From contig NC_087377.1 in assembly GCF_963675165.1 (NCBI RefSeq), positions 12,200,632-12,264,631 of the forward strand: 64,000 nucleotides of DNA, written 5' to 3'. This DNA is from Halichondria panicea. Its lineage: Eukaryota > Porifera > Demospongiae > Suberitida > Halichondriidae. Of this stretch, positions 1 through 54,413 are shown piece by piece; the stretch's first letter is position 1; every line of letters starts with the position of its first letter. A program made the position numbers and the translations under genes. Under the pieces are notes generated by a model. It saw only the letters and a list, made by a program, of their open reading frames with translations. It was not told where the DNA came from and searched no databases.

Positions 1-3000
1 TTCCTGTCCCTCCTCCCTCTCTGCTGCTAGTGGTGTGGTCATTGTCCAGATACCCAGTGTACCGACTGTGGGCTCCACACTGACCTTCACTTGTTTTGAA
101 AGTAATCAAATGATACCCTCTACCTGTGGCAGTGATGGACAGTGGAGTCCTAACCCTGAGGATTTCATGTGCCCAACAATAGGTGAGTATAATTATAGAT
201 GTGCAGTTTGCTTGCATTCAAGTTATGCATGGTATTTGACTGTATTGTTAAATACCAATAATTATAGTGACATGTGATGTTCCTGCGGCCCCCTCTATGG
301 GTAGTGTGAACACTAATGGTCAGTCTTACACAGAGGGGTCACAGGTAACTTATCAGTGCAATGATGGACTGTTCCCCATGTGTGTTCTGACTGCCACTTG
401 CACAAGAGATGGACAAAATGGAGTGTGGGAGCCTGATCCTAGTGTTGTGGTGTGCAGGACATCTCCAGGTAATGTAATTCTTCTCTAAACAAGATGTTCA
501 TAGAGCATTCACTCCATGCGTTAAGCTTCATTGCGCAGCGGCAAAACGGATACTTTATAATATTATGGGTGAATCTATAAAGCAACAATTAGAAAACAGT
601 GTTTTTGTCGCATTCGAAGATCGCCTACTATAATTATGAACTAGCCTATTATTTTTCAATTATTGTCTCATTAGCAGCCAGTCCAGTTCGCTCACACAGC
701 TCATTTTTATGTCCACACACACACCAATCACTTTACCCCTGCTCCGCACGCACGGGGTAATTTATAATTAACTATGTGTATGCATGCACTGTCACAGTTA
801 ACTGCTTTCTACCTGAGGAGCCCTCAAACAGAACTATAGTAAACTATGAAAGGTTGAATGTAACAGTGTTGGAGGGAACAGTGCTGACTTACCAGTGTGA
901 CAATGGACTCTCACTGACTGGACCCAACACCATCACTTGCACTAATGCTGGAGTCTGGAGCACTGAGCCTGAGGCAATCAAGTGTGTGTCACCAACTGAA
1001 GGTGAGAGTATAATTAACCTGAGGCACGTAGGCAACCACAGGAGTTATGGTAATCCCTTGGTTTGTTTGTGTGTGTATTTTAAGTATGCTCACCTGCATA
1101 TGGCTGCCATAGCGCCTTCGTTTACAGCATGGATATGTAATTATAATAGCCTCAACAAGTTATAATTATTTAAGCGGTAGATTTTGTAGCTTTGGATTAA
1201 AAGCAAGCAAAAAAAAGCTAAGAGAAGCTTATAACCTTAGGTACAATAATGTACGTGGCTTTAATTTTGGGTACGCCATTATACACATGCACGATATACA
1301 TCCATGTGGAGCCTTAGTTTTTCATGAGAAGAATTAATGGTCCGGGACTCCCAGAGCATGCCAGATGCCCCCATTTTCAGGGTGTGGCTTAGCAGGTGAT
1401 ATTTCACCTGCTTAAAATGTTCTAATATGTCCCACTTGGAGCATGTACATTTAGCACCTATATAAATTACCCCCTCACCCCCTCAACATTTGCACTATAT
1501 ACTTAATTAAAACTATTACTTTCATCGCGTCTACTATCCTTGGAGGTGGTTCCAAAGCTACATAACATAAAGCTACTAATAGCTAGCTTTTATACACCAT
1601 AATTATCATGATGAATTTTATTAGTCACAATTAATACTAGAGCACTGAAGTGCAAACCCTCGGCTGGTGACATGATTATAAAGAAACCAGAAGAGTGATA
1701 TAATGCAATGCATGTAGTGATGTATGACTGGCACAGCAACTCAGGAGCAATGAAACTAAACCAGACTAGAGGCATGCAGTGGTAATGAGGCATGCCCAGT
1801 GGACTAGGATCACAGCAAAGATGCCTGGAGTCTCAGAGAAGTATGATATGACTCCTGGGATCCTGGAGTCAGCTAACAGAGCAACAAACAAGTCACAATT
1901 CTAGCTTTCTATTGTAGTGACCCTTTTCCACTGTATTTGGTACGGGATCACTTCAGCTGTAAATACGGAGGATACCTCGAATAAAGGCCGCGTGTAGTTA
2001 GCTAACTAGCTAGCTGCCAATGTGCAAGTTCAAGCTTCTTAGTTCAACAAAGCTCTAACATCGAAATCTACTATTGTTAAAACTAATAGCTTATTATGTG
2101 AAGGCTATCCATGCTATAAACGCAGTGCTGTGGCAGCCAGGTGAGCAGATCCTGAAATTACAAACAGACAAACCAAACGACTACTATACCCGTGGCCGCC
2201 CACGCGCCTCGGGTAATAATACTACATTGTATAGATCTACTATAGCTGGTACATTGTATACGGTACTATATGCAATGTCACATGCTCCAGGGTTTGCAGC
2301 AAGATATTGATCGAAGTTACCCCATTTTTGTCTGAAAAATCATTCTCATTCAAAGTAACATTTTTCGGGGGGGATGCAAGCAAAACGTTCTATGCTAGCT
2401 AATCAACCATAATTATGTCACCCGCTTGAGTAAATTAAATCTGAAATAAATCCTGGCAGTGCATGTCTGACCACGCTCCACCATCTACCGTGGTGTCTAG
2501 TGGCACCACGATCGTTTTCAAAGCCATAAAGTCTAATAAGGTATATAAATAATTATAGTTTAATTCATTGCACTCTATTATTTGCTATGATTATATGTTT
2601 CCATATGCATGTTCAGACATACCTGGAAAATTTGGTGGGTGCTTTAATTTAGAAAATCGATATATAGACACAACGTCATTGTAGCAGTATATATAGCCAT
2701 GCCTGAGACATCAAATTAAAAACCGCCAATTACGTTCAAATGCTTATAGGTGCCAACTGTCCCAGATTTAGCACCCTTGTCCCGAAAGGAAACTGCTATT
2801 TACCTCAGATGTCCCGGTTGCTGCTTCTGAGCTGGCCATGGGTTACTAAGCTCCAACAAAGCTTTAATATCAAGCCTGGAACAGCTTGGAACTAGTCTCG
2901 AATACCCGCCTCAACCTAAAAGCTTGATTGAGTCTGGTCAAACTCATATTGAGGTTTGGTTCAAGTGTGTCCAGGAATTTCTTGGACATTTAATTGACCA

Positions 3001-4049
3001 CAAGTGGGTGTGAAGCATGAATAAAATTATAGTCTACATGAATATCATTATAGCTAACCGCCACGGAAAATTCATGGAGAGAGTTGTAAGGATGTGATAC
3101 TAGAACTCTCCAGACTAGCAACAGGACCTTTGGAACACCTTGTCGAAATTAACAGCCTAAATGCTCATTTATGTGAATGTGACCGTCAACCATGGTTTCA
3201 TGGCCCTCTAGCTCTGTGCAATGATGGCTTCAAGCTCAGTGTTTTTTTCTCGTAGGCTTTCAACTCCTAGCCTTAATTGATACACTGTCTGATATAGCCC
3301 TCTGTGTATGTTCTGTCCCTAACATGCGGTGGCTTGTGGCTTTATCACTATGCTTGTGGGCGTGTAGCCCACTTGACTTTGCTGACTGTGCAGAACAAAG
3401 TTCATATGTGAGTTTGACCAGACTCAAGCTTTTAGGTTGAGGCGGGTATTCGAGACTAGCTTGGAACTACTGCTAGAATCTTCTAACAGTCTTTATCGTG
3501 ACAAAATAACTTAGCTATAGCATCCAATAAGCTAGTGGGCACCATGTTTTGTCCCTGAAATTTGGTTGGGGAAGTTGGCACCTATATAATTTATATAATT
3601 ATATGTTTTTCTGCTGATTTGGTTCACCCGCAAAATATTCAGTAACAGTACAACACTGACAGTATACTCTTGGGTGTGATATACAATTTGCTAAGGCTTA
3701 ATTCAGCAGACTTAAGCTTGACAGCTAGTGCTCTAGTTGTACATGTTATCCCATTAATAATTATTGCTGCCAATCTTTCACAGCTCCGACTGCTGCCACC
3801 CTATCAACTGATGTAACTGTTGCCATTGGTGTTACTATTACTTTCATCGCGTCTACTATCCTTGGATTTCTCGTTGGACTCCTAGTGATGTACTCGTTTA
3901 CGCGTAAGAAGGCAGTGTACTACACCAGAAAAACAGCATTATCTGTTGTAGAACCCACTAAACCAGTTGGTCCTGTTTACGAGGAGGTGTCACCCAAAGA
4001 GGAGATTGAACTGAACACTAACCAAGCGTATGGACCAGTAGGACTGTGA
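1..4049 (+). CDS. R1: CCP/sushi receptor gene, 5'-truncated by window edge
   Basis: This is the 3' part of a single-pass membrane receptor; its signal peptide, Ig and FN3 exons lie left of the window. Exons seen: 1-182 (CCP1), 268-468 (CCP2), 798-1001 (CCP3) and 3784-4049 (membrane segment plus tail, TGA at 4047-4049). All visible introns are phase 1 with GT-AG ends, and the exon lengths keep one frame. CCP3 carries the family sequence TYQCDNGLSLTGPNTITCTN. The last exon gives a hydrophobic helix (VAIGVTITFIASTILGFLVG), a basic stop-transfer RKK, then the tail motifs PVYEEVSPKEE and NQAYGPVGL. The last intron is 2.8 kb and holds a Mutator-like element and a scrap of the membrane exon. Closest relative in the window is R7, whose last intron is also long and similar at its 5' end. 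The receptor role is inferred. Confidence 0.85.
1639..2225. repeat. Segmental direct repeat, copy 1
   Basis: About 590 bp aligns in the same orientation with 4491-5108, starting near CTAGAGCACTGAAGTGCAAA and ending near GCGCCTCGGGTAATA, with scattered substitutions and small indels. One copy lies in the R1 last intron and the other just 3' of R1. No open frame is conserved between the two, so it is treated as a non-coding repeat. Confidence 0.8.
2893..3458. mobile_element. Mutator-like non-autonomous element with 9-bp target duplication
   Basis: Terminal inverted repeats of about 55 bp (2893-2949 and 3403-3458) begin TAGTCTCGAATACCCGCC. The flanking direct repeat GCTTGGAAC occurs at 2884-2892 and 3459-3467. 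The boundary is ambiguous by one or two bases, so the duplication could be read as 7-11 bp, but 9 bp gives ends starting TAG like the other elements here. No transposase frame is visible inside. It lies in the last intron of R1. Confidence 0.75.
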
Positions 4050-4490
4050 AACTTCGTGCTATTATATGATAATTATTATTTTCTAGCCAGTATTATGTAG
4101 CTAGTGTTCATCTATATATAGATTGGTAATGATTTGTTTGAAAATAATAATTATAAACAATAATAATTATAGCACATTCATTAATAATATCAACAAAGAA
4201 ACGAGTACACATTGTTCAGTTACTGTTCTGTCAACCTATATACATACAGTTAAAAGGAAGTGCATCATAGCATAAGAAAAAATAAGCAATTGCAATGTAC
4301 TTGTATAAGCTACACACATGTAGACAGTCTGCCATTACGCAAAGATTCACGTTGGATTGTGTTGTTACAGGGTGAGGTGAGACAGCTCGTCCACTCCAGC
4401 AGACTGTACCAGGGCATTGTCACTGCTCTGTATAGGCACTCCTGCATGGTATAGGTGTGTGTATGTTAGGGGGGGGGGAGACATGTAAAC

Positions 4491-5108: not shown

Positions 5109-5141
5109 GTGGAGTATGCAGATCTACAATGTACATTATCA

Positions 5142-5362: not shown

Positions 5363-6999
5363 GAAATAGTTGTAGGAAACAAGGACACAAACTGTTTTGG
5401 AGCATAATTATGGCTTCTACACATTCCTAACAACTTACCAGGATAGAGTTCAGGAATAGATCGACGTGTCTCTTGAACACTCTCTTACCCAGCGACTTGG
5501 CAAACACTTTAAAGCTGTGGGAGAAGAATGAGGGGTGAGGTTGTGTGATGTGTGTGGATGTGCTGTGTGATTGAGGGTGTAATGGGGTATGGGATAAAGG
5601 TACGTTGTGTAGATTGGGTATACTTTGTACATGTGCATGTGGTATAAATATCCAACTGTGGACAGAGAGAGAGAGAAAGTGTTAGAGCAACATTGAACAC
5701 ATGCACTCAAGATACCGTATAGCCACAACACATAATACAACACAAATACTGTACAAGCATTGCATGTTCTGTGGAATGCACTTCTTACAGTGTCAACTTT
5801 TGAGGACATTAATCTGTTTAGCGAAGAACTGGTGTCTAAGAAATTTCAACCCATACACTATCCCTAAAGAAACTGGAGAGCTACTTTCATATATCTTACT
5901 CATCTCACCAGTTTGAGCAGTGACTCCAGGAGGTTGATGTGTTGAGGGTAGTGTCTGTGTTGTAGTGTCTCAGCACAGAGGAGGGAGGACACTCGGTCAC
6001 CACATCCACTCACACCACTCAGCTCTCCAAGCACAATAATAAAACTGGAGAGGGGGGTACAAAATTAGTAAAACTGCCTCAATTTACATCACACAACACA
6101 TTCACAACCCTTGGATCCACCACATTTATACCACATGCACATGTACAAAGTACCTTATCAAACACATCTTTGTACATGATCAGTACACCTAATCTACACA
6201 ACATCAACATACCTTTATCCCATACCCCACTACACCCTCAATCACATAGCATATCCACACATATCACACACCCTCACTCTTCTCCCACAGCTCTCCCGGC
6301 TTGTGATAGTGTGAGTCCATACATCCTCCCCTCCTCATTTTGGGGGCCAATGAACCACACCGGTACATCTGCTGGTCTGGGTTGTCATGAATACGATGCA
6401 CCACGCCAAATACAGCCGGTCCATGATCAATATCAGAGGAGCTGAGGAATGGGGAGGAAGAACAGTAATTGAATTGCTTCTAATCCCAAAACGTATACTG
6501 CATGACTATAATTATACACATACTCAAGATCACCAGCCTCAGGAGTTCCTTTGCCATGCAGTTGATCCTATCTTACATAGTCTGCCAGCTCCTCTAGGTT
6601 AATTAATTGGTCTTCCAGAGTAATTAACTCTTCATCATCCATTAATAGTCAATCAAGCAAGCAAGCAACTGCAATGAGACAAAACAGAGGGTAAAGATCC
6701 ACTACACAATAAACATCAAGTGAGACAGGGATATAGCTCTGATAAAGGGTCATGCAATCTATAACCATTATTTGATGGACATAAATGATAAAGGGTCATG
6801 CAATGTACATAATCATTACTGGTTGGCTGGTCTCTGGGAGGAACTCCCTCATAACCACGGAGGCTGACATACACAAAAATGGTAGTGGGCTCATGTAAAT
6901 TGTATCTAGAAAGTGAAAGCACTAAGAGAATGCAGTGATGTCATTGTAATGATGTAATAAAACGTCTCACGCTTCACATGGAGGCTATAGGTATCACTG

Positions 7000-7690
7000 G
7001 TCAACTATAGACATGGTTCAAACACTAATAGACAACACTTCATGACAATTGGTAGAAGAGCTTCCTCCCCTCTACCAGTTGTATCTGGCGTTTCTCAAGG
7101 AAGCATCTTGGGGCCTATGCTTTTCTTAGTCTATATCAATGATCTACCAGAACAATTAACTTCGCAACTTGTTACCCTGTTTGCAGATGATGCCAAACTA
7201 ATTACCCCAATATCGTCTTGCAATGACCATACAATATACTATTTTCATTTATCTATGGTCCGTCCAACGAAGGGCAACCAAGTTTATCCTAGGAGACTAC
7301 ACCAGAACTACAGACTATACAAAACTCGCCTCACTAAACTCAATATGCTCCCACTATATCTATGGTTTGAGCTCCAAGACATCGTGTTCTTAGTAAAGTG
7401 TCTTAAATAACCGCCAGACAATGTACAGAGCTGAGTACACATCTATAGGTAAACTCTCAACCACCAGAGCTGCTTCCACTGGTAAGAAGTTCAACCACAA
7501 AAGGAGCAGAACTACCAAGGCTATTGTTACAATCGTAGACTCTGCTCTATATATTGATCTAACATCGCCCCTAATACAGTGTATCAAAGGGAAACTACGA
7601 GCGTACTTATGGAACTACTTTGTGGTAACACTTGACCGTAGCTGGTGAAACTTGCTCATACCATTTAGTATGCCCCTGTGGAATAATTAG
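7000..7690 (+). pseudogene. Non-LTR retrotransposon reverse-transcriptase remnant
   Basis: The frame at 7042-7410 contains SGVSQGSILGPMLFLVYIND and LFADDAKL, the reverse-transcriptase core with the catalytic F-A-D-D box of CR1/Jockey-like LINEs. About 30 residues later the frame jumps to typical C-terminal sequence (RLTKLNMLPLYLWFELQDIV form). Further 3' sequence to about 7690 resembles the tail of such elements but has stops. No endonuclease domain or 5' end is present, so this is a 5'-truncated, internally deleted relic. Confidence 0.85.
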
Positions 7691-9985: not shown

Positions 9986-11606
9986 ATGCCAATGCCAATG
10001 GTAAGAGTCCTATATGATTATATAGCATACTATAACCAACTGTCTGTATGGTTTATAGGGATCAGTGATTTGGTCAGTTCTCCTTCTAGGAGGATGTCTG
10101 ATTGTAAATGTGTCTGGTCAGACAACCATTAGGTCTTCTCTGCAATCAACAAACAGAATGTATGTTTGTCCAGGAGAGATTGTTACCTATATGTGCAGTG
10201 GAACTGGAAACACAATTAGGCTAACAGCACCACCATATGTTCCTTTGGCCAATCCTTTGTCGTATGCGCGTGGAGACACTCTGGGATCAGGATAGCTAGG
10301 AATAGGAGGTGGCCCTATCGTATCAAATCTAATATCAACTGATTCACTTTTGATGGTAGCAGACTTGATAGTGCAAAATTCTTCATTGCCAGAGTTTTCT
10401 GTTCGTTGCACTGTTCTTTCACCTTCTGATGAAGCTGTAGCTCAGCACAAACCTTCAGGTACTAGGTATAAATTATGATTGACTCAGTCAGTTTTTAAGT
10501 TACTCGCCATCCTCTCGGAGATGATTGATAAGTGTGGTGTACTAAGCAATTAAATAATCACGCTATCATCATTGATTTCTTTACCATAGGTCCTCCTTTA
10601 GATGTGATTTCTCCTATGATTGGATATTTTTCCCCACCAAACGAAGGTACGGCTGGTGTGCGAGTTAACTGGACACCTAATGATGGAAACTATGACCCTA
10701 GTCACTTCACGATCCAGGTGTTTGACAGTAACACTAACACTGCAATTAAATCCATCGCTATTTCTGCAGAAAGCAATAGTTTTGAAGCAATACTTGCTGT
10801 ACCCTTTAGTGCTCCCATGGATGTCTACGCATGTGTAACAGTGACGTCCAAGTGTAACCAGACAACCGATGGAGTTATGACGGACTCCATTCGGATCAAT
10901 AAAAGTTAGTGGCTATAAAGTAGGTAACTGTGAAAAACATTCAGGAGCATACTTATAATTATAAGAAGTGTTTAGCAAGTAGACCCTGGCCAATTATAGC
11001 TCAAAAATCCAATACAGCCCCCAATTAGGTGTACGTATACATCCCTGGAAATCAACAAGCAGATAACTTTGGCATATACATTGAACTGAGCGTTAATTAG
11101 CAAACAATATCTGTAATTTCACTTTTTTTTATTGCTAATTTCATTATCAAATACTCTTCAATGGCGCTGCGATGGACTAATGGACGTATGTACAGATCTA
11201 ATGTATGTGTATTTATATAGACTCTATTTTTAGACTGTGAATCTCAGATAAGTCTGAGCCACATGTTTTGTTTTTTTGTCAGTTCTCTCAATTTATTGAT
11301 TTTATATGAGAGTTCTCAACGATAGACACTGAAAATATAGGCCGTTGCTAGTCTAGCCTATCAGTCTATCACAGGCACATTCTCAAGCATTTCTAAAAAA
11401 TATGTGAATCATCTAATTCTATTCATGCAGGTATAAAGACAGCATACGTGTTCTGGGTACTCTTTTCAGCTGCAACAGTTGTCCTAACAATAATCTATGC
11501 CTGTGAACAATTTACAGGTATATACTAGTAAGACTTAGTGTATATCTATTCCAGTATTGTACTGTCAGTAGCTGATGCTTTTTATGCAGGAAATAATTTT
11601 CTGTGA
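9986..11606 (+). pseudogene. R2: short Ig-FN3 membrane protein with in-frame stop
   Basis: Five exons: 9986-10000, 10059-10458, 10590-10904, 11431-11517, 11590-11606. The 15-bp first exon (MPMPM) splices in phase 0 to a signal peptide (GSVIWSVLLLGGCLIVNVSG). Next come an Ig-like domain with the family motif CPGEIVTYMC, an FN3-like domain with several possible N-glycosylation sites, a membrane helix (VFWVLFSAATVVLTIIYA), and a nine-residue tail (CEQFTGNNFL type) without tyrosines. The exon lengths sum to 277 codons in one frame. However, TAG at 10293-10295 interrupts the Ig domain (codon 84), and the frame continues cleanly to a second cysteine (FSVRCTV) and a good donor. It is therefore a recent pseudogene, a polymorphic null or a sequence error. 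A poly(A) signal AATAAA is at 11725-11730. If expressed it would be a non-signalling relative of the array receptors. Confidence 0.7.
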
Positions 11607-22784: not shown

Positions 22785-23412
<628 letters not shown>

Positions 23413-26635: not shown

Positions 26636-28842
26636 ATGATGGAATTTCTTGTCCAAAGATGTCTCCTGCTTTGTCTCTACACAACATCAGCTCTAGGTGT
26701 TGCAAGTAAGTTCATGTGGTTGTGTATGAGGCTATAGAGCTGAGGCCTAGACTCTCAGTTATGTATAGGTTTAGGCTCAGCATGCAGTCAGCACTAATCA
26801 ACCACAAAATATATTTAAGAAATATGATTCTTATACCAATCATTCTTGTGTGGATATAAGCTGGCAATCTAACAGTAAACTGTTTTGTTTTCAAGGTATC
26901 TATTTAATTTTCAGTCTCAGTCTATTGATTTCTACTAAGTTCAGAATCTACTGAGTAATGTATGCATGTGCTATAGATCTATGCAGATATGGTGTGTTTA
27001 GCTATTAAACTAATTGAACAAAGAGGGCAAGCTTTTTATCACACATGCTGTTATCGTCTATTTTTGCAGCCATTCAGTTGACATCCAGCACTGGTGATGG
27101 TGCGGCATGTCCAAATGACCCTGTTGTCTTCACCTGCTCTGTGAGTGGAACTGTTTTACGATGGATAGCTGATCCTCCACCTGGCTATGTCATATCTGGG
27201 CAGGTGACACAACTTTTATTTTCTACTATTACTGTTAATCTCCTGCCTGCTGGAGTTGAAGGATTCATGTTTCAAGCTGCTGTAACGAATACAAGTAATG
27301 GTACTCTTACCTCCACTCTCACCACCATCACTGAGGTGTCCTTGCTGAATGGCAGTGTTGTCACCTGTTCCAGCGGTGGAACAATGGAGTCACGATCAAT
27401 TACAGTGGCCAGTCAGTGAGCCAAAACAAAACACTGCATGTATATTATTGCATCTCAAACAGACTCTCCATCGTCTCCATCAACTCCAATATTGGCTTCA
27501 CAACATAATGTAGTCAGTTCCACTATTATCACTCTGGACTGGGAATCTCCCTCTTCTACTGGTGGTGTGTCACTCAGCTATGTCCTCATAATCTCCCCAA
27601 CACCTCTCTCCGGGTCAACAGTCACTGTGGAGACCACCTCAGCACAGATCATTACTTCTTACAATATTCTCTACACTGTGGCCATCAGAGCTGTAAACTG
27701 TGCTGGATTTAGTAGTGATATTATGATGACGATGATTCCTTCTATTGGTAATTAGTTGCTATACACTAGCTAACCTTGTGTTATTTATTTTCTGCTTGCT
27801 GCAGTTATCTGCCCCTCTAACCCAACACCTGCAAACAGAGTGACCATCAATGGTGCTCCACCACTGCCTGCACTAGTAGGATCAACACTAAGCTTCACTT
27901 GCAATGGACAGATGGTACTAGCAACCTGTGAGAGTGATGGACGATGGTCACCTGACTCCACCACATATAACTGTCCCTCAGGTTAGATAGATCACTTTCA
28001 TGACTGTTACTATTTGCCCCCTTCCTTAGAGGTCACCTGTGGGCCTCCTGTCACACCTTCCAGAGGCAGTGTGGACGTTCAGGGCCAGACATCACCCTTT
28101 TTGATGGACTCAGTGATAAACTTTCGTTGTGACAAGGGACTTTTCCCAGCTGGTGATATGTCCAGTACATGTGACAGTGTAGGAGGAGTGGGAATTTGGA
28201 GACCAGACACTAATATAATTTGCAGAGACATACCTGGTGAGCATGCCGTTAACTATAGTGTGCATCATAACTATAATTATGTTGCATTCACCACAGTCAA
28301 CTGCTCTCTACCCAAGGAACCATCCAAGGGTATTATTATAGTGGACTATGAGCTGTTGAATGAGACAGTGTTCGCGGGAACAATGCTGACTTACCAGTGT
28401 GACAATGGACTCTCACTGGCTGGACCCAACACCATCACTTGCACTAATGCTGGAGTCTGGAGCACTGAGCCTGAGGCAATCATGTGTGTGTCCCCAACTG
28501 AAGGTGAAGGCCATCATGTGTGTACTTGAATGTGAGTTATGGTTCGTAATCTCATAATACCTCGATTTTACAGGTCCTACTGCCACCTCCCTATCCATTG
28601 GTGCAGTTGCTGCTATCAGCGTAATTATTACTTTCTTTGTGGCTGCCATTCTTGGATTCCTCACTGGACTCATAGTGATGCACCTTTGCTCTCGTAAGAA
28701 GGCGGTGTACTCTCTAGCAGCTAAAGGACAAGCTAACGTAGGACCCACAGCACAGCCAGCTGGTCCTGTTTATGAGGAGGTGTCACCTAAAGAGGAGATG
28801 GAACTGAACACTAACCAGGCGTATGGACCAGTAGGACTGTGA
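26636..28842 (+). CDS. R3: Ig-FN3-CCP3 receptor with tyrosine-motif tail (complete)
   Basis: Seven exons: 26636-26705, 27070-27411, 27463-27747, 27805-27981, 28030-28236, 28297-28503, 28574-28842; all introns phase 1, total 518 residues. Residues 1-23 are a signal peptide (MMEFLVQRCLLLCLYTTSAL). 24-137 is an Ig-like domain (ACPNDPVVFTCSVSG, then RWIADPPP and VVTCSS). 138-232 is an FN3 domain (TLDWESPSS, SYVLIISPTPLSGS, YTVAIRAVNC). 233-291, 292-360 and 361-429 are CCP-like modules. 430-518 holds one membrane helix, RKK, and a tail with PVYEEVSPKEE and NQAYGPVGL. The start was chosen because the first of two adjacent ATGs gives the signal peptide. AATAAA lies at 28984-28989. CCP1 is short (59 residues). 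Inferred role: cell-surface recognition with tyrosine-based signalling or endocytosis. Confidence 0.93.
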
Positions 28843-31205: not shown

Positions 31206-33440
31206 ATGCAAGTACAGACAGTTATTATTATCAGCATCCAGCTGTTTTCTCTTGCTGCAGGTAAGTTATAATACATCATGTACATGCATGTTCACTGGAA
31301 CACACATTTTTTACAGCCACTTTGACATCCAACTCCACTGTGGCTTACCCTGATGACACTGTCACCTTCACCTGCACTCTGCCTGGTAGTCTCATACGAT
31401 GGATGGCTTCACAAGGCCAAGTGCAGTTGTTCAGAATCGATTTGACCGTCAGCAACACTGATGAGACGCGAGGTAATCCAGCATTCTGTGGTGTTCTCAC
31501 TGATTCCAGTAGAGGAATGCTCACTGCCACTCTCACGTCACTGTCTGAGGCCTCCATTGTAGAGGGTATTATGGTGGATTGTGTGGGAGAGAGCTCACGA
31601 GAGGGTCCTCTCACCATCACTGTGGCTGGTGAGTTCTTTGTTTGTAACATAACACTGTGGAAAGTGGTTCATACACCCACATGCAGATCCACCCTCCCCT
31701 CCACTGAACCCAAGAGTATCCTCCACTCTAAATCAACCCAGCTCCTCTAATATCACTCTGGACTGGGACTCCCCCTCCTCTACTGGTGGTGTGTCTGTCA
31801 GTTATGTCCTCACCATCTCCCCAACACCTCTCTCCGGGTCACCAGTCACCATGGATACCACCTCCACACAGATCACCATCTCGTACAACACTACCTACAA
31901 TGTGACTATCAGAGCTGTCAACTGTGTTGGAATGAGTCAAGAAACTTCAATTGTTGATTTGAGTAAGCCATTATTTGCCTTGGGAATGTCGTCATTGATT
32001 GTATTTGGCTGCATTTTTATAGTTCATAAAACATACGTACTTGTCTTATCATACTATTAAATCAACGCAGTGGTGTGCCCCACACCGTCTACTGCTGCTG
32101 GTGTGACCATCACCAACGCACCTCCTGTCACTATTGGTGGATCCATGCTCACCTTCACTTGCAGTGGAGACAGTGAAGTGACCTCAACCTGTGGCAGTAT
32201 ACATAGTGGATGGTCTCCTGACCCTGGGACCTTCGACTGCAGCAGTCCAGTTACAGGTATCATACATGAGGAATTAACTCTCTAAAGGGAATGTTGATCT
32301 CGTGCAGTAGATCCCCCAGTCAGTTGTGGTTCTCCTGCTATACCATCTAGAGGCAGTGTGGACATCAATGGTGGGACACCACCCTTCTCACTGAGTTCAC
32401 AAGTCATCTATCGCTGTGATGAGGGACTGTTCCCCCCTGATGTGAGGACCAGCACATGCACTGATGTGGGGGATAGGGGAGAGTGGGTGGAGAATCCTGG
32501 GAGCTTGGTGTGCAGAGAGAGGCCAGGTGAATTGTAGTTGGGCCAAGCCAACTTCTAGGCAGGCCGGTAAAAAAAAATCTGGAGAGTGGGAGTTTTTAGA
32601 CTTAAATTGTTAGGCTTTCTACACCACACTGAGTTGTGGTAACCAAATAAGTGTTATGGAGTGGGTGGTTGTAGGTGTTTTTTTACCAAAAAGTGACTCG
32701 CTTGCATTCGTGAAGTGTGTAATTAAGTTGGCTTGGCCTTGTTCAGAGGGTTTTTGATTTCCTTCATTCTATAATTTCTGTGAATTGTATTAGTTTATGT
32801 ACACCGTTCGTTTCACACTTTCTTAGTATTCAATGGCAGGTTATTGGATGCTCGTGTTCATATTACAAACATGTACTCATAAAGTCATTTTTTGACCGTC
32901 CCTATAGTCAACTGCACTGTACCTGCTGAGCCTTGCAATGGTGCTATAGTTGAGTATGAGAGGTTGAACGAGACAGTGTTGGAGGGAACAGTGATGACCT
33001 ACCAGTGTGACAATGGATTCTCACTGACTGGACCCAACATCATCGCTTGCACTAATGCTGGAGTCTGGAGCACTGAGCCAGAGGAAATCATGTGTGTACT
33101 TACAACTGAAGGTGATGGATGAGCTTTGTAATTGTTTGCTTATCTACTACCGGTATTCCATCTCATAGTTTATACTGTCGCTCCTTTGTTCTCCACTTCT
33201 GCAACTGTCACTATCAATGTGGTCATCACTTTCATTGTCACTCTAGTCATTGGATTCCTCACTGGGCTCCTAGTGATGCATGTTTCCTCTCGTAAGAAGG
33301 CAGTAGTATACTCCCCGGCAACTGAAGGACAAGCTAACGTAGGACCCACTGCACCAGCTGTTCCTGTTTATGAAGAGGTGTCACCCAAAGAAGAGATTAA
33401 ACTCAACACAAACCAGGCGTATGGACCATTTGGACTGTAA
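31206..33440 (+). CDS. R5: Ig-FN3-CCP3 receptor with tyrosine-motif tail (complete)
   Basis: Seven exons: 31206-31260, 31317-31628, 31687-31962, 32071-32256, 32308-32526, 32908-33111, 33169-33440; all introns phase 1, 507 residues. Residues 1-18 are the signal peptide (MQVQTVIIISIQLFSLAA). 19-122 is the Ig-like domain (YPDDTVTFTCTLPGSLIRWM): the first of the usual two N-terminal cysteines is replaced by tyrosine, and the domain is 10 residues shorter than in R3 and R7. 123-214 is FN3 (TLDWDSPSSTGGVSVSYVLT). 215-276, 277-349 and 350-417 are CCP modules. 418-507 holds the membrane helix (VVITFIVTLVIGFLTGLLVM), RKK, and a tail with PVYEEVSPKEE and NQAYGPFGL. Intron 5 contains a small inverted-repeat element. 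Inferred role as for R3. Confidence 0.93.
32541..32740. mobile_element. Small MITE inside R5 intron 5
   Basis: GGCCAAGCCAACTT near 32541 is the reverse complement of AAGTTGGCTTGGCC near 32726. The 200-bp insert makes this intron 381 bp, against about 50-60 bp for the same intron in R3 and R7. Confidence 0.6.
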
Positions 33441-35069: not shown

Positions 35070-36030
35070 AATTTTATTGTTACTCTGGACTGGGACCTCC
35101 TTCCTGAAAGTCTGTTAAACAGCCAACTATAATTATGTCCTCATCTCCCTAACACCTCTCTCTAAGTCACCAGTCACTGTGGAGACCATCTCGGCACAGA
35201 TCACTATCTCCTACAACACTCCCTACAACGTGACCATCAGAGCTGAGAGCTGCATGTACTATAATGTTGAATAGAAGTCAAATTTTGAATCTGAGTAAGC
35301 CAGTATAATTATCATTTTCCTCTTTACTGCCGGCTGCTGTGTGTCACCAACATACCTCCTGTCATGATTCATGGATCCATACTCATCCTAATTCAGTCAC
35401 TTGCAATGGAGACATGCACAGGAATGAAGAACCTCAGCATTCAGCAGTATAGCGGGTAGTCTCCTAACACTGGGACTTTTGATTCACTGCCACATATGAT
35501 AATCTATTATTCAGCTCTAGGTAGCAGGGCTGCTGCCTTTGGACCTAGCTATAATTATAGTTGGCTGTTGGAGGTGTTGTGTTGGTGTTCTGTTTGTTTT
35601 TGATTGTTTTTGATTGTTGTAGAGCTCATAGTTGTTTGTTTCACCAAGAACTTGAAAAGTGGAGGTTATGGAAGGATGCATGTTTACGATTGTACAAATC
35701 AATTTTGTTTATGAGAAGTGAGACAATGGAGATTTTGTAATGACTAACTTGCTCTGGAGGCCACATTGAGTTGCAGTCGAATCAGGCTTATATTTTGGAG
35801 AAATCAAATAATTATAATATTATGCTACTTGATCTTGATTGTGAACTGTTTGTTTACTTATCAATAATGGTCATGATTGCATTCATCTTTATTGTCAACA
35901 GAACAGTATCCTTTATGATCACAACAGCTGGCTAAACAAACACTAACAGGTTACTCAGCCCACAGCTATTTACTGAAGTCAGCAATTTAGCAAATGTTTC
36001 ATTAACGATATTTACTTTTTGAAAACTTCT
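35070..36030 (+). pseudogene. R6: decayed receptor copy, duplicate of R4
   Basis: Pieces in order: an FN3 exon (35070-35290; TLDWDL-like start, SPVTVETISAQITISYNTPY recognisable, with frame breaks); a CCP1-type exon (35337-35490) with the same rearrangements as R4; a membrane-like segment near 35575-35640 (AVGGVVLVFCLFLIVFDCC); a tail segment near 35765 (IELQSNQAY); and a match to the R4 YSSWLN exon near 35925 with a stop. The shared lesions show R4 and R6 were duplicated after some decay. It sits directly upstream of R7, as R4 sits upstream of R5. Confidence 0.6.
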
Positions 36031-36095: not shown

Positions 36096-39000
36096 ATGAC
36101 TTTCAACATTATGTGTGCAGTGCTAGCAGTATTATTTCTGGATGCGAAAGTCACAGAAGGTGACTATTTTAGCTATCTTAAATTATATCTAGACCACCAT
36201 ACATAATTCTCTAGTCTATTATTAAAGCTCTTCTGTATACTTTGTAGGCACTCTGACATTCACCCCAACTGTGGCCTGTCCTGATGACACTGTCATCTTC
36301 ACCTGTATTGCGACTAGTGATGTGGATGTGGCATTTAGGTGGACATTAACTCCACCACCGGAACTGAATGTGGCCATTGTCTCAATAACAGCGACGAACA
36401 CTGCTAGAAGTATTACGAGTAGTGGTGATGGGTTCATTTTCCGTGCTGATTACTTTGGACTGGATGAAGGCATAGTCACATCTACAGTCACCACCCTCAC
36501 TACGGTGACAGTGCTTGCTGGAACCAGGGCACAGTGTGATGTAATAGGAGCAGGAGGAGGAGGGGGTCCAATACCGATCATTGTGGCGGGTGAGTAAATT
36601 TTGCAGAGGCATTTTATGTAGGGCACTATCTTTAACTCAGACGTCCCCTCCCCTCCACTGAATCCAAGAGCATCCTCCTCTCAGAACCAACCAAGTTCGT
36701 TCATAGCCACTCTGGACTGGGACCTTCCTTCCTCTACTGGTGGTGTGTCTGTAAACTATGTCCTCGCCATCTCCCCAACACCTCTTTCTGGATCACCAGT
36801 CACCGTGGAGACCACCTCCACACAGATCAATGCATCTTACAACACACCCTACAATGTGACCATTAGAGCTGATAACTGTGTTGGACTGATGAGCAATGCC
36901 TCAATACTGTTTACTATACCGTCCCTAGGTCAGTTGCACCACTATAATTAGTGTTTCCTGCGCACACAGCTGGCAACTATTAAATTTGTCCACATTATAG
37001 TTGCCTGTCCCTTTTCCCTCACTGCTGCTAGTGGGGTGGTAAACATCCAGAGACCAAGTGTCCCAACTGTGGGCTCCAAACTGATATTCACTTGTTCTGG
37101 AGATGATCAGATGAGAACCTCTACCTGTGGTACTGATGGATGGTGGAATCCTGACCCTGAAAATGTTATATGTCCAACGATGGGTGAGTTAATGACAGTA
37201 CGTTTGCAATTGCATTAACCAACCATTTCTCTTACAGAACCCCCAGTGACCTGTCCAGTTCCCAGGGCCCCCTCTATGGGTAGTGTGAACACTAGTGGTC
37301 AGTCTTACACAGAGCAGTCACAGGTCACATATCAGTGCAATGAGGGACTCTTTCCAATGGGTGTTCTGACTGCCACTTGCGCAAGAGATGGACAAAATGG
37401 AATATGGAAGCCTGATCCAAGTACTGTGTTGTGCAGGACTTCGCCAGGTAGTGCTGTAATGGTCAATCACTTTATTTGCTGTTGTCTACACAGTCAACTG
37501 CACTGTACCTGTTGAGCCCTCCAACATAAGTATAGTGGACTATGAGAGGTTGAACGAGACAGTGTTGGAGGGAACAGTGCTGACTTACCAGTGTGACAAT
37601 GGACTCTCACTGACTGGACCCAACACCATTACTTGCACTAATACTGGAGTCTGGAGCACTGAGCCTGAGGCCATCATGTGTGTGTCACCAACTGAAGGTG
37701 AGGGAAATTAACCCGAAGCACGTAGGCGGCCACGGGTTATATATAGTATATAGTCTGTTGATTTGTTTGTCCGTTTGTCTGTCTGGGTATTTTGAGTCTG
37801 CTCACCAGGTTGCCCTAGCGCTTCGTTTACAGTATAGATAGCCTCAACACACAAAAAATAATGTTTTTAGTGTGACTTTGTTGGAAAGTGAGCAAAAGCT
37901 AAGAAGCTTACCTTGCACCTTTAGCAGTGGCGTAGGAAGTAGGGTGGGCTCCAAGGGCTGGAGCCTCCCCTTGTTGGAGAGCACTGTTTAGCTTGAACTG
38001 TTGAGCTAGCTTATATAGCTACAGCATGCTGGCTACATGCAGCCAGCTAGCTATTATACGTAAGATCCAATGATGGGCTAGGTTTTAAAAGTCTAAAGTG
38101 TAAATGATAGATGTACCACATGCATGCTGAGCCCCCCCCCCTTGTAAAAAGTCTTCCTACGCCTCGATCTGTTTAGGTATACAATCTATATACATAATTT
38201 ATAGCCAAAACACGGCTTTCATTTGAGGCATGCCATTACACATGTATGATTGTGCACTGACTATACCACCTATATATGGAGCAAATTTTTTTAATGGGAA
38301 GACTTTTTTGCTGCACGGCTAGTGAGCCTACTGTGGTCCCACTGCATGTCAGGTGTCCTACTTGTAACACTATAGGCCTCGATCTTTGCTAGCTCTGCTG
38401 TGATCCTAACGGTCTGGGACTCGACTAGTGCATGTCAGATACCCAAAAATTGCATTCATCCCAGCTGGCGCCTAAAGTATACACTGTTAAAAATGGCGCG
38501 CTACTTTACACGTTTTTCATGTGTTGGTATGACTGTTTAAGTTTTACACACACAAAGTGTGGTAAAAACACACCTATGACGATGTGTTATCTAACCCATT
38601 TCAAGAGTGTTCAGGGACACTGCTGTGGTGCGCTCTACTGCACATAATGAATGTAAAGTAACACCCTTAGTGTGCTAGCCTTACATGCCAAATCGTCCCT
38701 ATATGCATGGCATGCATTTAACAATTACACAATCATCTGATAAATAAAAATACTAGCAGTGATGAAACAGTGGAGTACACGTATGTCACAAGAAAAAAAC
38801 GATATAACGTACGTACATAATTATTATATATAGAATGCATCTAAGCTGTAAATCTATTTCAAAGTCACTTGAAACTTTCTTAATTTGCTGAAGCAGTCTG
38901 ACAGATACCATGCATATGCTGACTTCATGGGGCTTGTCATGGGATCTTCATGTTTGTCTCCACATTCTCGTCAGCCTGGATGAATACATTCATAGCTATT

Positions 39001-40377
39001 ATAGTAATAATTTGACAGAGAATTATTCAGTATGTGTATATATACTCACATCAAGAATTGTCATTGTTCTTATCCACTGGCATATAGACATGTAGACGAG
39101 CTCCTGTGTAAAAAGATGAAGATAAACCTTTATTAAGCTATAGTGTATAACAAATGACTTACATGCATGGCTGCTATATCAGGAGTATACTCCTGGCTAT
39201 ATATGTATAGCTGTCTTGCTTTGATACACTTGCATGTGTCATCGTCCTTGGGTGCTGGATTGATCTCTCTGTGACTACATGGTGACGCTAATGTTCTACA
39301 TAATTATAGTATAGACATTTAACGGTACAGCTCAGTATATATAGCTAGCTAGCAAGTGAAACTGAGCTAGACCACAGCCCATTCAGTAGTGTGATGGAAT
39401 GGATGTCTAAGCCTTTTTATAAGCGCCAGAAAAAATAATTATGCTGATCCTGACGTGGCACTGTAATTACATCAATTACGGTACATTGGATCTACTTCAT
39501 GTATAGCTGGTACATTTGTACAATGTCACATGCTCACAAAAATTCCTGAAATAAACCCTAGCTGATTCGTATAATATTATAACATTCCGGACTTCTTTTC
39601 CTGTCTCTGCCAGGGTTTCATCTATAGTGGGGGGGGGGGGCTGGGGTGAACCTTCCCCCCAAAAATGTTGTAGAATAACGACATCATCACATTAGTACTA
39701 CATGGCATCATCATATTTAGTGTGATTAACTAAGGCAGTGATGCGTTAGACTAAGCATGTAATGAGCGTAGCCAAACATTTTGCGGCAAATCTTCCCCCC
39801 AATATTTTTGATCCTAGATGAAACCCTGTCTGCTGTGATCCTAGTCCCATGCATGCAGTGCATGTCTGATCCTGCACCACCTTGGTGCCACGTTTTCAAA
39901 GCTGTTATAATAGGGTACAAATCATTGTGTTCTGCAATCATGTACATAGTTTAATTCATTGCCCTCTATTACTTGCTGCTCCATGTTCATACATATACTT
40001 GCTTATTATACAACACAGTAAGTACTTATACAACTGCCTATACAGGCTTCAGCTAGTTCTCTAGTTGTTAGCCCTATATACAATAATCTTTCGAATTCAC
40101 AGCTCCGACTGTAGCAACCACGACAGCTGCCACCCTATCAACCGGTGTAACTGTTGCCATCGGTGTTACTATTTTCATTGTGTCTACTATCCTTGGATTT
40201 CTCGCTGGACTCTTAGTGATGTACTCGTTCATGCATAAGAAGGCAGCGTACTCCACAAGAAAAACAGCATTATCTGTTGTAGAACCCACTAAACCAGTTG
40301 GTCCTGTTTATGAGGAGGTGTCGCGTACCAAAGAGGAGATTGAACTCAACACTAACCAGGCGTATGGACCATTATAG
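36096..40377 (+). CDS. R7: Ig-FN3-CCP3 receptor with tyrosine-motif tail (complete)
   Basis: Seven exons: 36096-36159, 36248-36589, 36641-36928, 37001-37183, 37238-37447, 37494-37697, 40103-40377; all introns phase 1, 521 residues. Residues 1-21 are a signal peptide (MTFNIMCAVLAVLFLDAKVT). 22-135 is the Ig-like domain (ACPDDTVIFTCIATSDVDVA, FRWTLTPPPE). 136-231 is FN3 (TLDWDLPSS, SPTPLSGSPVTVETTS). 232-292, 293-362 and 363-430 are CCP modules. 431-521 holds the membrane helix, a KK stop-transfer, and a tail with PVYEEVSRTKEE and NQAYGPL; TAG at 40375-40377 ends the protein two residues earlier than in R1. The last intron is 2.4 kb with two MITEs, and its 5' part resembles that of R1. An 18-bp-arm hairpin with AATAAA follows the gene. 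Confidence 0.92.
37925..38166. mobile_element. MITE with CAGTGGCGTAGGAAG end, in R7 last intron
   Basis: Left end CAGTGGCGTAGGAAG; right end CTTCCTACGCC. About 240 bp, non-coding. The same end motif bounds a shorter element at 41365-41476 and its duplicate at 56958-57067. Confidence 0.6.
39611..39828. mobile_element. MITE with CAGGGTTTCATCTA ends and 5-bp TSD, copy 2
   Basis: Ends CAGGGTTTCATCTA and TAGATGAAACCCTG are inverted. TCTGC flanks both sides (39606-39610 and 39829-39833). The interior is similar to the copy at 15590-15825. It lies in the last intron of R7. Confidence 0.8.
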
Positions 40378-48532: not shown

Positions 48533-48541
48533 AGTGTGTGT

Positions 48542-48584
<43 letters not shown>

Positions 48585-50512: not shown

Positions 50513-50519
50513 GATATAT

Positions 50520-51865
50520 ATATATACAGCTTTGGTAAAGGACTAAAACTATTAATTTTAACTATTACAATTCAATCAACCCTATTATCATGTGCACTGG
50601 CATACTCACCTGCAATCTCGTAGTTCCTATTTTAGCCAATAGCGATGAATATCATTTATTAAAGTAGGTGTTGAATTGCTCAGTCAATCCAATGTGTGCA
50701 AAATTCACATGTGGTAAAGTTGAGTGGGTGTGATCAATCCCCTTGAGATACTGCAATCTGATTGGAGCTGGTGGAGTTGGTGGAATTCCAACAACAAGTG
50801 TGGATAGGCTTGATTCCCGACCTCCTTCCGGGCAACGGTAGAGGGTGGTTAATTTATGAGACTATGTTTCTGCACGGTTTCTGTCGCTGAATCTGTTGAC
50901 TTGCATATGGCTACGCCGCCCCGGAGTATTACGGCTACTTAATGGCCCAAGAGCGTAACTACTGACATACGAGTGCATATAGATGTTGGCATGGAGATTG
51001 TCCTGGGAACAGCAAGACACCGAGGCATAATAAAATATCTGTCACCTACTAGTATTCACTCTCATTTTGCCTATACCCATGCAGCCAAAGAAAGTGGTAT
51101 AGATTATAGATGATTATTGCAACATAATATGGACGAGGAACCTGGGTATCCAAAAAGTCCATTCTTTGGGTACAGAAGAGGTTTCCTGAGATGGTCTGCC
51201 ACTGCTCGATCCAGTCGAGAACATGCACATCTCTAAGGTTAACATGTACAACACTGCTGGTGAGATAGCCACATATTTGTAGTCACTTTAAAGCATCTCC
51301 TCTCCTTTGTACTACTGATTTTTACTGGTATGCAATAATGTAATTGAGACAGTGCTGTGATGGTTGAGGAAGATGGAAAGTAGCCAATAACATTAGATTT
51401 TCCAATACGTACCAATATGTACCAACACGGATTTTTACTCCAAATGGTGTTGGGACGACCAAACATCTTAATTACGCCATTATAGTACAGAGTCAGACAG
51501 TTTGAAAGTACTATAATTATACGTAACTTTCAGGTAGACTTGGTCACACAAGGAGTTTGTGATTATCAGATTTTGAGATTCATGTATCATGTATTATGGG
51601 TGGATATAACCTTCTGTATGGTAATCATTGAATGTCGAATACTAAGAATTATTGAATATTGACTTCTAAGATTAGTGAATATCAAATACTAAGAACTTAT
51701 GAAATTCTACTTTCAACTCAACCTTTCTCTTACGTACAAATTGCACGTTCTAATGTTATGCTTAGCCATGAATAAAATTATGAAGGAATCTAGTGTATAT
51801 ATAAAGATCAGTATCAGTACCTATTTGTCATTCAATCTGTAACGTAAAATTGAAGTGAAAGGTCA
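50520..51865. other. No gene recognised
   Basis: Intergenic sequence between the foldback element and the 51871 gene. It includes a possible upstream region with TATATATAAAG at about 51797-51807, roughly 65-75 bp before the start codon, which could serve as a promoter box. No exon is supported. Confidence 0.45.
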
Positions 51866-51870
51866 CAAAT

Positions 51871-53000
51871 ATGACAACTGTAAAGGTAAGTTAATTGTCA
51901 CTCTCTCTAATAATGCAGCAAGCTAAACTTATTCACAGAAATTCAGAAATAAAGACTACAACGAGTTGATTTTTATCTGGTTGTTGCTTGCAAACTTACT
52001 TTATACTGGAATCAGAGATGCTCTTCATGTTTTAGACAGGTTTGATGCACCATTGGGTGAAGCAATTGGAAACTTAACTGTCTTCTTCATAATGGGGCTG
52101 GTCGCTTGTATTCCTGGAATAATTGAATCAGTTCGTCTGTATCCTAAGAAAGAGTTGAATCAGCAAAGAGCTTGGTTGATTATGAAAACATGGATCCAAC
52201 TTGTTTGCATATCATTATGTTATTTTATTGGAGATAATTTGTACCAAACACTTAGTGTCCATGGCGAGCCTATAGGATGTGGTGATCGTTGCTTAACTAC
52301 TAGTCGAATCGCTTCACTAGCATGCTTAGGCATAGCAGCTGTATCCGTGTACTTAACACCCAGTTTGTTCAAAGAGATTGAAAGTGCTGCAAAATTTGAA
52401 GAGAAAAAGGAGGAAGAAAGCGAGAGAAACAGTGATCTGCTGCACATATTGCTGAAGCTGTTTGTTGAAGGAGTAAAAGTTGATATAATGTACACAACAC
52501 TACTTGGATTTGGTATGTCGTATGGGTTTGATTTTGACACAAAAAAAATGCAATATTGTGAAAACGGGAGCAAAGCATATGGCCTGCTAATCATTGTTAG
52601 TTGCTACTTGATTGCCATAGTTATTGCATTTATACAATATCGTAGCACTTTAATAAAATGTCAAGCCTGCAATCATGAAAAAAGAAAAAAATGGAGAAAG
52701 ATAGTTTCTGACATATGTACGTGGGACCGAATGCTTGCTATCTGCTGTTGCCTTTTTTTCCTTTTTTTTCTTGTCATGTTCACACTTGCCGACAATCCCC
52801 TACCGTTAGAATACGAACTTTGCAATTATAACTCCTCTTCCCCAGAATATCGCCTTACCAAGCAACGTATCTTTCAAGTGAAAAGTGCTTTGAGTTTCAT
52901 ATGCTTTCTATTGGTATTAGTACCCGTATTTGCTCTCTTTTGCATTAATTTTATTAATTCACTGTTCTACGCTCTAATAACACATGTGCGAATGCATTAA
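51871..53000 (+). CDS. Unidentified multi-pass membrane protein (about eight helices)
   Basis: Two exons: 51871-51885 (MTTVK) and 51939-53000, joined in phase 0 across a 53-bp intron (GTAAGT...TTCACAG), 358 residues with TAA at 52998-53000. The long exon lacks an ATG at its start, so the short first exon supplies it. Hydrophobic segments, approximate residues: 14-31 (LIFIWLLLANLLYTG), 48-68 (LTVFFIMGLVACIPGIIE), 84-105 (IQLVCISLCYFIGDNL), 125-145 (ASLACLGIAAVSVYL), 180-200 (VDIMYTTLLGFGMSYGF), 215-237 (LLIIVSCYLIAIVIAFI), 265-285 (LAICCCLFFLFFLVMFTL), 320-348 (SFICFLLVLVPVFALFCINF). A charged linker (FEEKKEEESERNS) separates helices 4 and 5. Cysteines are frequent in the helices. No family was recognised. 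It is the only intact non-receptor gene seen, and its 15-bp first exon and phase-0 intron resemble those of R2. Confidence 0.85.
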
Positions 53001-53640
53001 GTAAAAATTAGGAATTAGACACATTCTACTTTACTGTTTTTATAGAACCATTTTTTAACATCTAAAGAAGGTATATACCCATTTTGAAACAAATCAATTG
53101 AGTATTATTTTGTTATACAGAATTCAGTTAGAAAGCATACAAGTAAAACAATAGACAGTTGCACTAACACTCTATTTAACGTCCTGATTGCTATGACCTT
53201 TGACCTAATTATAATTAACATGTAACAATTATGTAGGAAGTGGTAAGAATGATTTCCCCAAAAATTCCAAGAAGCCATCCTGCTTACAAATCATGTACTA
53301 CAATGTGTTGAACTTTTAAAGCTTCATATTTCAAAACCGGAAATGTGTCAATTCCTAATTTTTACTTGATGCATTCACATAATTATATATATACTCGTCG
53401 ACTTTTCCTTGTTTACAATACATGTGTGAAAACGTGTGTACATTATTATTTTTATAGCTATTTAAGAAAAAAGTGCTCTTATTTTTATTTTTTCATGTGT
53501 ACCATTTTATATTTTTATTGGTATGAAATCTATGGCCACGCAGATTCACCTAATTGTGTACCGGTGTAGAAGCAATATGGGGCTTCCCCCGATTTTGGGG
53601 CCCCCCCCATAGCCCTATTTCACTAGCGCTTTGAGGACCT
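53001..53640. other. No gene recognised
   Basis: AT-rich 3' flank of the multi-pass gene, ending in a G/C run region (53580-53610) before R8. Ig and FN3 exons expected upstream of R8 are not present here. Confidence 0.55.
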
Positions 53641-53645
53641 TCCAG

Positions 53646-54413
53646 TAATATGGGGCCCTTGGACAAGTGTCCAGCAGATTGCCAGGATCCACAGTAACCA
53701 TCCAGTGTGATGCTGGGTATGTGTCTGCGATTACAATGGTGACATGTGAGGGTACTCTGATGTGGAGTCCAGACCCTGAGGCTATTGAGTGTACATCACT
53801 AACCACACCTACTCCCACAACTCGTGAGTTAAGCTCGTGGCTGTGTATGGATAATTAATGTGTTCAATATTAATTCTTCACACAGTCCCCCCTCCAATGA
53901 ACTGCACAGCTTCACTACTCCCACCACGGGATGGCACCATCAGTAATTATTCAGTACCAGCTATTCCCGGTACTCATGTGACTTTCCAGTGTGACAATGG
54001 ACTGTTCCCTGGGGGGGTAATGACTGCCACCTGTCTAGCTACGGGAGAGTGGGACAGGAACACGAGGGAGATTGTCTGCAGAGGCAAGCGTATTCATTAC
54101 TTGAATACACTTGTAATCATAATTCTCTCTTGAACCACCTACAGCTGCTCTTTGTAATTGTGCCAGCCTATCTGCAGCTGTCTCCATCAGTGTGGTTGTC
54201 ACGGCAGCTCTATTTACAATCATTGGATTGTTGATAGGACTCTTGATAATGCATTTGTTCATACATAAGAAGGCAGTGTACTCCCCGTCAGCTAAAGAGC
54301 AAGCTAATGTAGGACCCACTGTACCAGCTGGTCCTGTTTATGAAGAGGTGTTACCCAAAGAGGAGACTAACCAGGCTTATGGACCATTAGTAATTTCATC
54401 AACAGTTAATTAA
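53646..54413 (+). pseudogene. R8: truncated receptor copy (two CCP modules plus tail)
   Basis: Exons: about 53646-53823 (CCP, 178 nt, so one base off the multiple of three required of a phase 1-1 exon; first cysteine not found, later GSTVTIQCDAGY and VTCEGTLMWSPDPEAIEC intact), 53886-54083 (CCP, CQ/CDNGLFPGGVMTATC) and 54145-54413 (membrane helix and tail). The donor at 54084 is GC (AGAG|GCAAGC), a recognised minor donor class. The tail has PVYEEVLPKEE, lacks the IELN segment by deletion, then NQAYGPL and a novel extension VISSTVN. No signal peptide, Ig or FN3 exon lies upstream. Probably a pseudogene; the last two exons alone remain open. Confidence 0.75.

What the first reader, a model, noticed from the sequence alone, without database searches (positions are those of the whole stretch)
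1..54413. Tandem family of Ig-FN3-CCP receptors with a shared tyrosine-motif tail
At least eight plus-strand copies (three complete) share one architecture: signal peptide, Ig, FN3, three CCP-like modules, one helix, and a tail with PVYEEV and a C-terminal NQAYGP. Seen directly: exon order, phase-1 introns, motifs. Known: Ig, FN3 and CCP domains are adhesion and immune-recognition modules; YxxV and NxxY sequences can bind SH2 or PTB proteins or endocytic adaptors. Inferred: a lineage-specific recognition receptor cluster, perhaps for microbes or allorecognition. I know of no described family with this exact combination.
Basis: partly seen in the sequence, partly recalled or inferred. Interest (0 to 1): 0.9.

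Follow-up and report, generated by a model that had tools for sequence, protein, structure and literature searches.

The report
Giant sponge antibody-like receptor gene cluster
A sponge chromosome carries a multi-megabase block of well over a hundred copies of one kind of cell-surface receptor gene, each with a different antibody-like tip above a shared signalling motif, which makes it a strong candidate for how sponges tell self or microbes from other things, although that function is untested.

The parts
2..4049 (+). Gene G01, 3' part: CCP (about 5-172), CCP (268-468), CCP (798-1001), type-A TM/tail exon (3784-4049). An alpha Ig exon lies upstream of the window at C1:12198807.
10101..10906 (+). 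Divergent relative: Ig-like start (10101-10241) and FN3-like exon (10586-10906; fn3 only 13 bits in Pfam); no CCP or tail detected; a stop codon follows in the Ig frame
27070..28842 (+). Gene G02 (alpha, tail B): Ig 27070-27411, FN3 27463-27747, CCP 27805-27981, 28030-28236, 28297-28503, TM/tail 28574-28842. Signal-peptide exon not assigned.
   Evidence: duplicated 85.7 kb downstream at 97.9% DNA identity
31206..33440 (+). Gene G03 (alpha, tail B, 507 aa): SP 31206-31260, Ig 31317-31628, FN3 31687-31962, CCP 32071-32256, 32308-32526, 32908-33111, TM/tail 33169-33440
35125..35256 (+). Lone FN3 fragment of the family
36096..40377 (+). Gene G04 (alpha, tail A, 521 aa): SP 36096-36159, Ig 36248-36589, FN3 36641-36928, CCP 37001-37183, 37238-37447, 37494-37697, TM/tail 40103-40377
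53664..54413 (+). Gene G05, 3' fragment (beta-type CCPs, tail B): CCP about 53664-53792, CCP 53886-54089, TM/tail 54145-54413; no Ig or FN3 found upstream

Best explanation
This is a very large, recently duplicating family of single-pass cell-surface recognition receptors in a demosponge. Each gene carries a V-set Ig domain at its N-terminal tip on an FN3 plus two or three CCP stalk, and ends in a TM helix with a short tail (about 45 residues) carrying PVYEEV. Ligand contact is proposed to be by the V-domain loops, which differ from gene to gene while the framework stays similar. Signalling is proposed to be shared: the tail tyrosine would be phosphorylated by a Src-type or receptor tyrosine kinase and recruit an SH2 protein, since pYEEV resembles the pYEEI that Src-family SH2 domains prefer (recalled). 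Segmental duplication and exchange of exons between subfamilies would keep joining new tips to a common output. The most likely use is self/non-self or microbe discrimination. Shown: gene anatomy, copy number, predicted V-set fold, concentration of variation in the loops of beta genes, invariance of PVYEEV in the tails aligned, one tail clade with both ectodomain types, kinase exons behind a cousin ectodomain. Inferred: ligand binding, phosphorylation, immune role.
Against: No expression, ligand, polymorphism or signalling data. Ig as a whole has omega 0.58 and 0.60, no higher than FN3 (0.58, 0.58); a first pN/pS contrast did not survive. Loop omega 1.12 in five beta genes fell to 0.82 with 45, and the two FG columns kept give 0.33. 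In alpha genes the contrast is weaker: C to D segment 0.54 versus 0.38 for the rest. I fixed the loop mask after seeing the entropy string, guided by the model's strands; framework strings also vary (37 of 45 distinct, against 42 of 45 for loops). Apart from the motif the tail is not specially conserved: mean identity 0.68, omega 0.63 (alpha) and 1.03 (five beta genes) for its cytoplasmic part. PVYEEV fits no strict ITIM, ITSM or ITAM.
Confidence: 0.62

Rival explanations
1. A narrower form of the best reading: the sponge allorecognition complex. Alleles or haplotypes of these V-set receptors would decide graft fusion or rejection, as Alr does in Hydractinia and the fuhc locus in Botryllus.
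For: Same general design as Botryllus FcoR: variable-type Ig, sushi, two C2 Ig, TM, tail that can hold a core YxxI/L/V motif, 520-610 aa, 53 loci so far (PMC12065747 passages). Alr is an IgSF family of at least 41 loci with V-set and I-set domains (passages). One chromosomal block; variation in V loops.
Against: 179 or more copies is well above those loci; no polymorphism or genetic data; no ITIM or ITAM in 20 readable tails, whereas both other systems are reported to have such motifs. From recall, sponge allorecognition has been tied to aggregation factors.
Confidence: 0.3
2. Another narrower form: microbe-sensing receptors, a broad germline repertoire used by a filter feeder to tell food, symbionts and pathogens apart.
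For: Large paralogue number and recent duplication. Other sponge receptor families are similarly large (over 600 SRCR genes in Halichondria panicea), and Sushi-, FN3- or Ig-containing genes respond to microbial ligands in other sponges (PMC8242945 and PMC6208332 passages).
Against: No microbial ligand or response data for this family.
Confidence: 0.3
3. Kinase-less partners of receptor tyrosine kinases: they would share ectodomain ligands with the C6 kinases, which would phosphorylate the YEEV tail in a joint complex, with a role in adhesion or development rather than immunity.
For: Ig-FN3-CCP-CCP-TM order followed by tyrosine-kinase exons on C6, with 7 kinase-exon copies in 2.310-2.366 Mb.
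Against: Only two Ig matches were found at C6, 38% identical to the alpha query; loop variability and large copy number are not what I would expect of developmental receptors.
Confidence: 0.13
4. Part of the copy number is an assembly effect: uncollapsed haplotypes inflate the count.
For: Several pairs with equal match scores at fixed offsets (234, 567, 717 kb, 1.43 Mb; one pair is 100% identical to the same query) and one copy on a small contig, C32.
Against: The window plus 200 kb downstream hold 0 N and 24 tails (29 pieces merged by me); the 17 tails aligned to the first share 53-84% with it. The 85.7-kb-spaced duplicate lies inside that gap-free stretch and differs by 2.1% in DNA.
Confidence: 0.15

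Closest known systems
Botryllus schlosseri fester co-receptors (FcoR, fuhc locus)
   Different: Modules differ: V, sushi, C2, C2 there; V, FN3, CCP2-3 here. FcoR tails can carry ITIM or hemITAM; none in 20 tails here. 53 loci there, at least 179 Ig exons here
Hydractinia allorecognition complex, Alr family
   Same: Duplicated, divergent single-pass IgSF receptors in one chromosomal interval, assigned to the IgSF with the help of structure prediction (PMC11067881 passages; V-set noted in PMC11999971)
   Different: Alr ectodomains hold V-set and I-set domains; here one V-set plus FN3 and CCP. Control of fusion is established there, untested here
Sponge receptor tyrosine kinases with Ig ectodomains (Geodia cydonium RTK)
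   Same: Ig-bearing sponge receptors; in this genome a locus with the same ectodomain order is followed by kinase exons
   Different: No kinase exon was found in 264 kb of the cluster. The Geodia RTK is known to me only from a citation in PMC12018476 and recall
Sponge Ig-TIR receptors and SRCR/Sushi/FN3 receptors
   Same: Immune-type sponge receptors using some of the same modules (passages)
   Different: No TIR or SRCR domain was reported by Pfam in the four receptors scanned

Membership tests
Immunoglobulin superfamily, V-set | V-set beta-sandwich fold | tested here: met
Immunoglobulin superfamily, V-set | Conserved B-strand Cys, C-strand Trp, F-strand Cys | tested here: met
   C19, W28, C88 invariant in 16 of 16 aligned Ig exons; two of the 18 listed were left out, one identical duplicate and one spanning two stretches
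Immunoglobulin superfamily, V-set | Pfam Ig-family model over its cut-off | tested here: not met
   No Ig family at E 0.05 in four receptors; at E 1 the best of three single Ig exons is Ig_2, 14.3 bits against a cut-off of 27
FN3 and Sushi/CCP domain families | Pfam fn3 and Sushi over cut-off | tested here: met
   Sushi over cut-off in 4 of 4 receptors; fn3 in 3 of 4, the fourth 23.0 bits against 25
Botryllus FcoR | V-type Ig, sushi, two C2-type Ig, TM | tested here: not met
   V-set, FN3, 2-3 CCP, TM in the gene models
Botryllus FcoR | Core Y-x-x-I/L/V cytoplasmic motif | tested here: met
   YEEV in 20 of 21 modelled genes; in the 21st (G15) the tail frame is broken
ITIM/ITAM receptors | ITIM [ILVS]xYxx[ILV], ITSM TxYxx[VI] or ITAM in the tail (patterns from recall) | tested here: not met
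   No match in 20 of 20 readable tails
[quoted passage not shown]
   One Ig exon per gene model, followed by FN3 and CCP
Allorecognition locus | Alleles determine fusion or rejection | not testable with these tools
   One assembly, no phenotypes
Receptor tyrosine kinase | Intracellular tyrosine kinase domain | tested here: not met
   No hit of six kinase-exon profiles (each from one C6 sequence, E 0.01) in the 264 kb; the C6 cousin has kinase exons

The most novel reading that the evidence does not exclude
This block is the histocompatibility or immune-receptor complex of sponges: a germline repertoire of V-set receptors with antibody-like variable loops above a shared tyrosine-signalling motif. 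It would then share its design with the Botryllus and Hydractinia allorecognition loci, and might have arisen by joining a receptor-kinase ectodomain to a kinase-less tail.
Probability: 0.28. Interest if true: 0.95.

Novelty: new variant of a known kind. Interest (0 to 1): 0.77.

Why it matters
Which genes let sponges tell self from non-self is, to my knowledge, still open (recall; PMC12065747, passages, says that candidates in sponges, cnidarians and ascidians are not conserved). A mappable block of V-set receptors with variable loops in a demosponge would make the question testable by linkage, population resequencing and binding assays. It would also add a sponge case to the pattern of V-set tips on tyrosine-motif tails seen in tunicate and hydroid allorecognition loci, which bears on whether that design is ancestral or convergent.

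Tried and rejected
Elevated selection on the whole Ig exon: suggested by pN/pS, not supported by codon maximum likelihood. Positive selection in the loops: omega 1.12 in five beta genes, 0.82 with 45, so not claimed; alpha FG omega 3.67 rests on 7 codons and is not used. ITIM/ITAM reading of the tail: rejected. Species: the Rfam rRNA search failed twice; COX1 gave one nuclear fragment with two in-frame TGA. Of five cathepsin-like stretches read, two show CGSSYAF (L077, L078), two show the ordinary CGSCW (L075, L076) and one shows neither (L079); I read the first two as silicateins, hence a demosponge, species unknown. Kinase inside the cluster: none in the 264 kb; a broken piece at C1:11377534. 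The C7 copy has a broken Ig exon. Foldseek gave no hit under E 0.001 for the alpha model (not listed for beta). A PDB profile search gave only weak antibody V hits, best 2.8e-4. Not resolved: whether far-apart equal-scoring pairs are alleles.
Full report
The window is C1:12200632-12264631 of a 131.5-Mb assembly in 39 contigs. Two of five cathepsin-like stretches read show CGSSYAF, with serine where cathepsin L has its catalytic cysteine. From recall this is the mark of silicateins; I therefore take the animal as a demosponge, species unknown.

Anatomy. In the window, five TM/tail exons with PVYEEV start at 3784, 28574, 33169, 40103 and 54145. Three genes are complete. My exon finder allowed only phase-1 GT-AG sites, so that feature is checked for consistency, not discovered; the frames do run through, and I read the first gene's sites by eye. 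Signal-peptide exons at 31206-31260 and 36096-36159 give proteins of 507 and 521 aa. Over the window plus 200 kb downstream (no N) profile searches found 29 tail pieces, which I merge to 24 tails, and 28 Ig pieces. Of 21 gene chains modelled, 14 have an uninterrupted Ig-to-tail frame, one of them (G25) with a damaged-looking CCP and one (G10) a near-copy of G02; the other seven are cut, partial or broken. Part of the cluster is therefore pseudogene or fragment.

Size. A tail query scored 150 of 299 candidates: 149 on C1, one on C7; 127 of 150 on the + strand; some matches are partial or hold stops. An alpha Ig query gave 126 rows and a beta Ig query 121. Two rows just over 70% were among those left out, so 179 is a lower bound for that reason and because the searches are capped. 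Recent duplication is evident: two blocks of 4.7 and 2.2 kb around G02 recur about 85 kb away at 97.9% and 97.1% DNA identity inside gap-free sequence.

Variation. The Ig exon is the least conserved exon between paralogues: mean identity 0.41 (alpha) and 0.58 (beta), against 0.50-0.81 and 0.68-0.84 for the others. Synonymous divergence is also higher in Ig than in the rest in 38 of 45 alpha pairs and 15 of 21 beta pairs, and codon-model omega is not higher in Ig. So the contrast partly reflects exchange or homogenisation of the downstream exons rather than selection on Ig. Inside the V domain the picture is sharper. I took 45 beta Ig exons: 40 fetched (+ strand, equal-scoring pairs taken once, from the 72 rows) and 5 from the 264 kb. 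Of 85 kept columns, the 30 in the BC, C-C'-C''-D and FG segments average 1.17 bits against 0.26 for the other 55; of 85 rotations of the mask only the true one is as high; omega is 0.81 against 0.34 (FN3 0.60, on the 41 of 45 FN3 exons that were long enough); 42 of 45 loop strings and 37 of 45 framework strings are distinct. Only two FG columns were kept because that loop varies in length. The mask was fixed after I had seen the entropy string, guided by the model's strands. In alpha genes the contrast is weaker. Positive selection is not shown.

The tail. PVYEEV is identical in 18 of 18 aligned tails (of the 20 listed, one identical duplicate and one spanning two stretches were left out). NQAY is less constant: G12 and G19 depart from NQAYGP. 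PVYEEV fits YxxPhi and the 'core motif' YxxI/L/V, but not ITIM, ITSM or ITAM. Outside the motif the tail is not specially conserved. Tails come in two types. Type A sits 0.9-2.8 kb behind the last CCP in six genes of the 264 kb but 0.1-0.6 kb behind it in three other loci; type B usually follows within 0.2 kb, with two longer gaps where a CCP exon was not modelled. FN3 exons (11 alpha, 9 beta) split on one long branch at 100/100. Type-A tails form one clade at 100/100 with 4 alpha and 4 beta rows, and alpha as one tail clade is rejected at p = 7.8e-8 (21 rows). One of the beta rows is the C7 copy with a broken Ig exon, and one (L006) is called beta from its CCPs alone. I infer that tail exons, or ectodomains, have been exchanged between two old lineages.

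The cousin. On C6, an Ig-FN3-CCP-CCP-TM order is followed by tyrosine-kinase exons in the same orientation; Pfam names PK_Tyr_Ser-Thr in three of three kinase exons, fn3 and Sushi there, and nothing in the Ig exon. Seven kinase-exon copies lie in C6:2.310-2.366 Mb, two Ig matches beside them. That this is one transcript is inferred. The cluster has no kinase exon in the 264 kb. Which came first is not shown.

Comparison. The nearest described design is the Botryllus FcoR family: V-type Ig, sushi, two C2 Ig, TM, tail that can hold ITIM, hemITAM or a core YxxI/L/V, 520-610 aa, 53 loci so far (passages of PMC12065747). Hydractinia Alr is an IgSF family of at least 41 loci (passages of PMC11067881; V-set and I-set noted in PMC11999971). 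Neither has this module set, so it is not a member of either; it may work like them. [quoted passage not shown] I found no paper describing this architecture or cluster in nine searches, which cover open-licence PMC papers only; I read passages of nine papers, none in full.

Verdict. A real, very large and recently duplicating receptor cluster with V-set tips whose loops vary and an invariant tyrosine motif. The recognition role is the best reading (0.62); allorecognition and microbe sensing remain about equal.

Noticed in passing
window 22788-23408: A perfect (AC)n run of about 310 units, 100% identical by TRF.
   Followed up: no
window 51927-53000: A 357-aa open frame rich in hydrophobic segments between family members; no Pfam family over its cut-off.
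   Followed up: partly
window 6991-7410: Reverse-transcriptase fragment, below Pfam's cut-off (26.6 against 29.6 bits).
   Followed up: no
window 10101-10906; L012:3405-4228; about 134.7 kb (L016) and 207.0 kb (L023) from the window start: A third, divergent Ig/FN3-like type recurs: pairs at 10.1-10.9 and 97.4-98.2 kb, and a related Ig start with a signal-peptide-like stretch at two further places, one with a stop.
   Followed up: partly
upstream of beta genes G07, G08, G16, G21 (L009, L010, L018, L025): A shared 25-27-bp minisatellite (ATGGTGATGTTGGTGTGTGTACACTGT) ends about 0.4 kb upstream of the signal-peptide exon in 4 of 9 beta genes or fragments checked and 0 of 9 alpha genes; it might mark duplication or recombination sites.
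   Followed up: partly
G000: C12 4.55-5.57 Mb, C1 3.85-4.49 Mb, C11, C5, C6: Clusters of related receptor-tyrosine-kinase exons (81 rows at E <= 1e-8).
   Followed up: partly
L009:7832-8143 and the matching gene G16: In two beta genes with tail A the distal block around NQAYGP is tandemly doubled.
   Followed up: no
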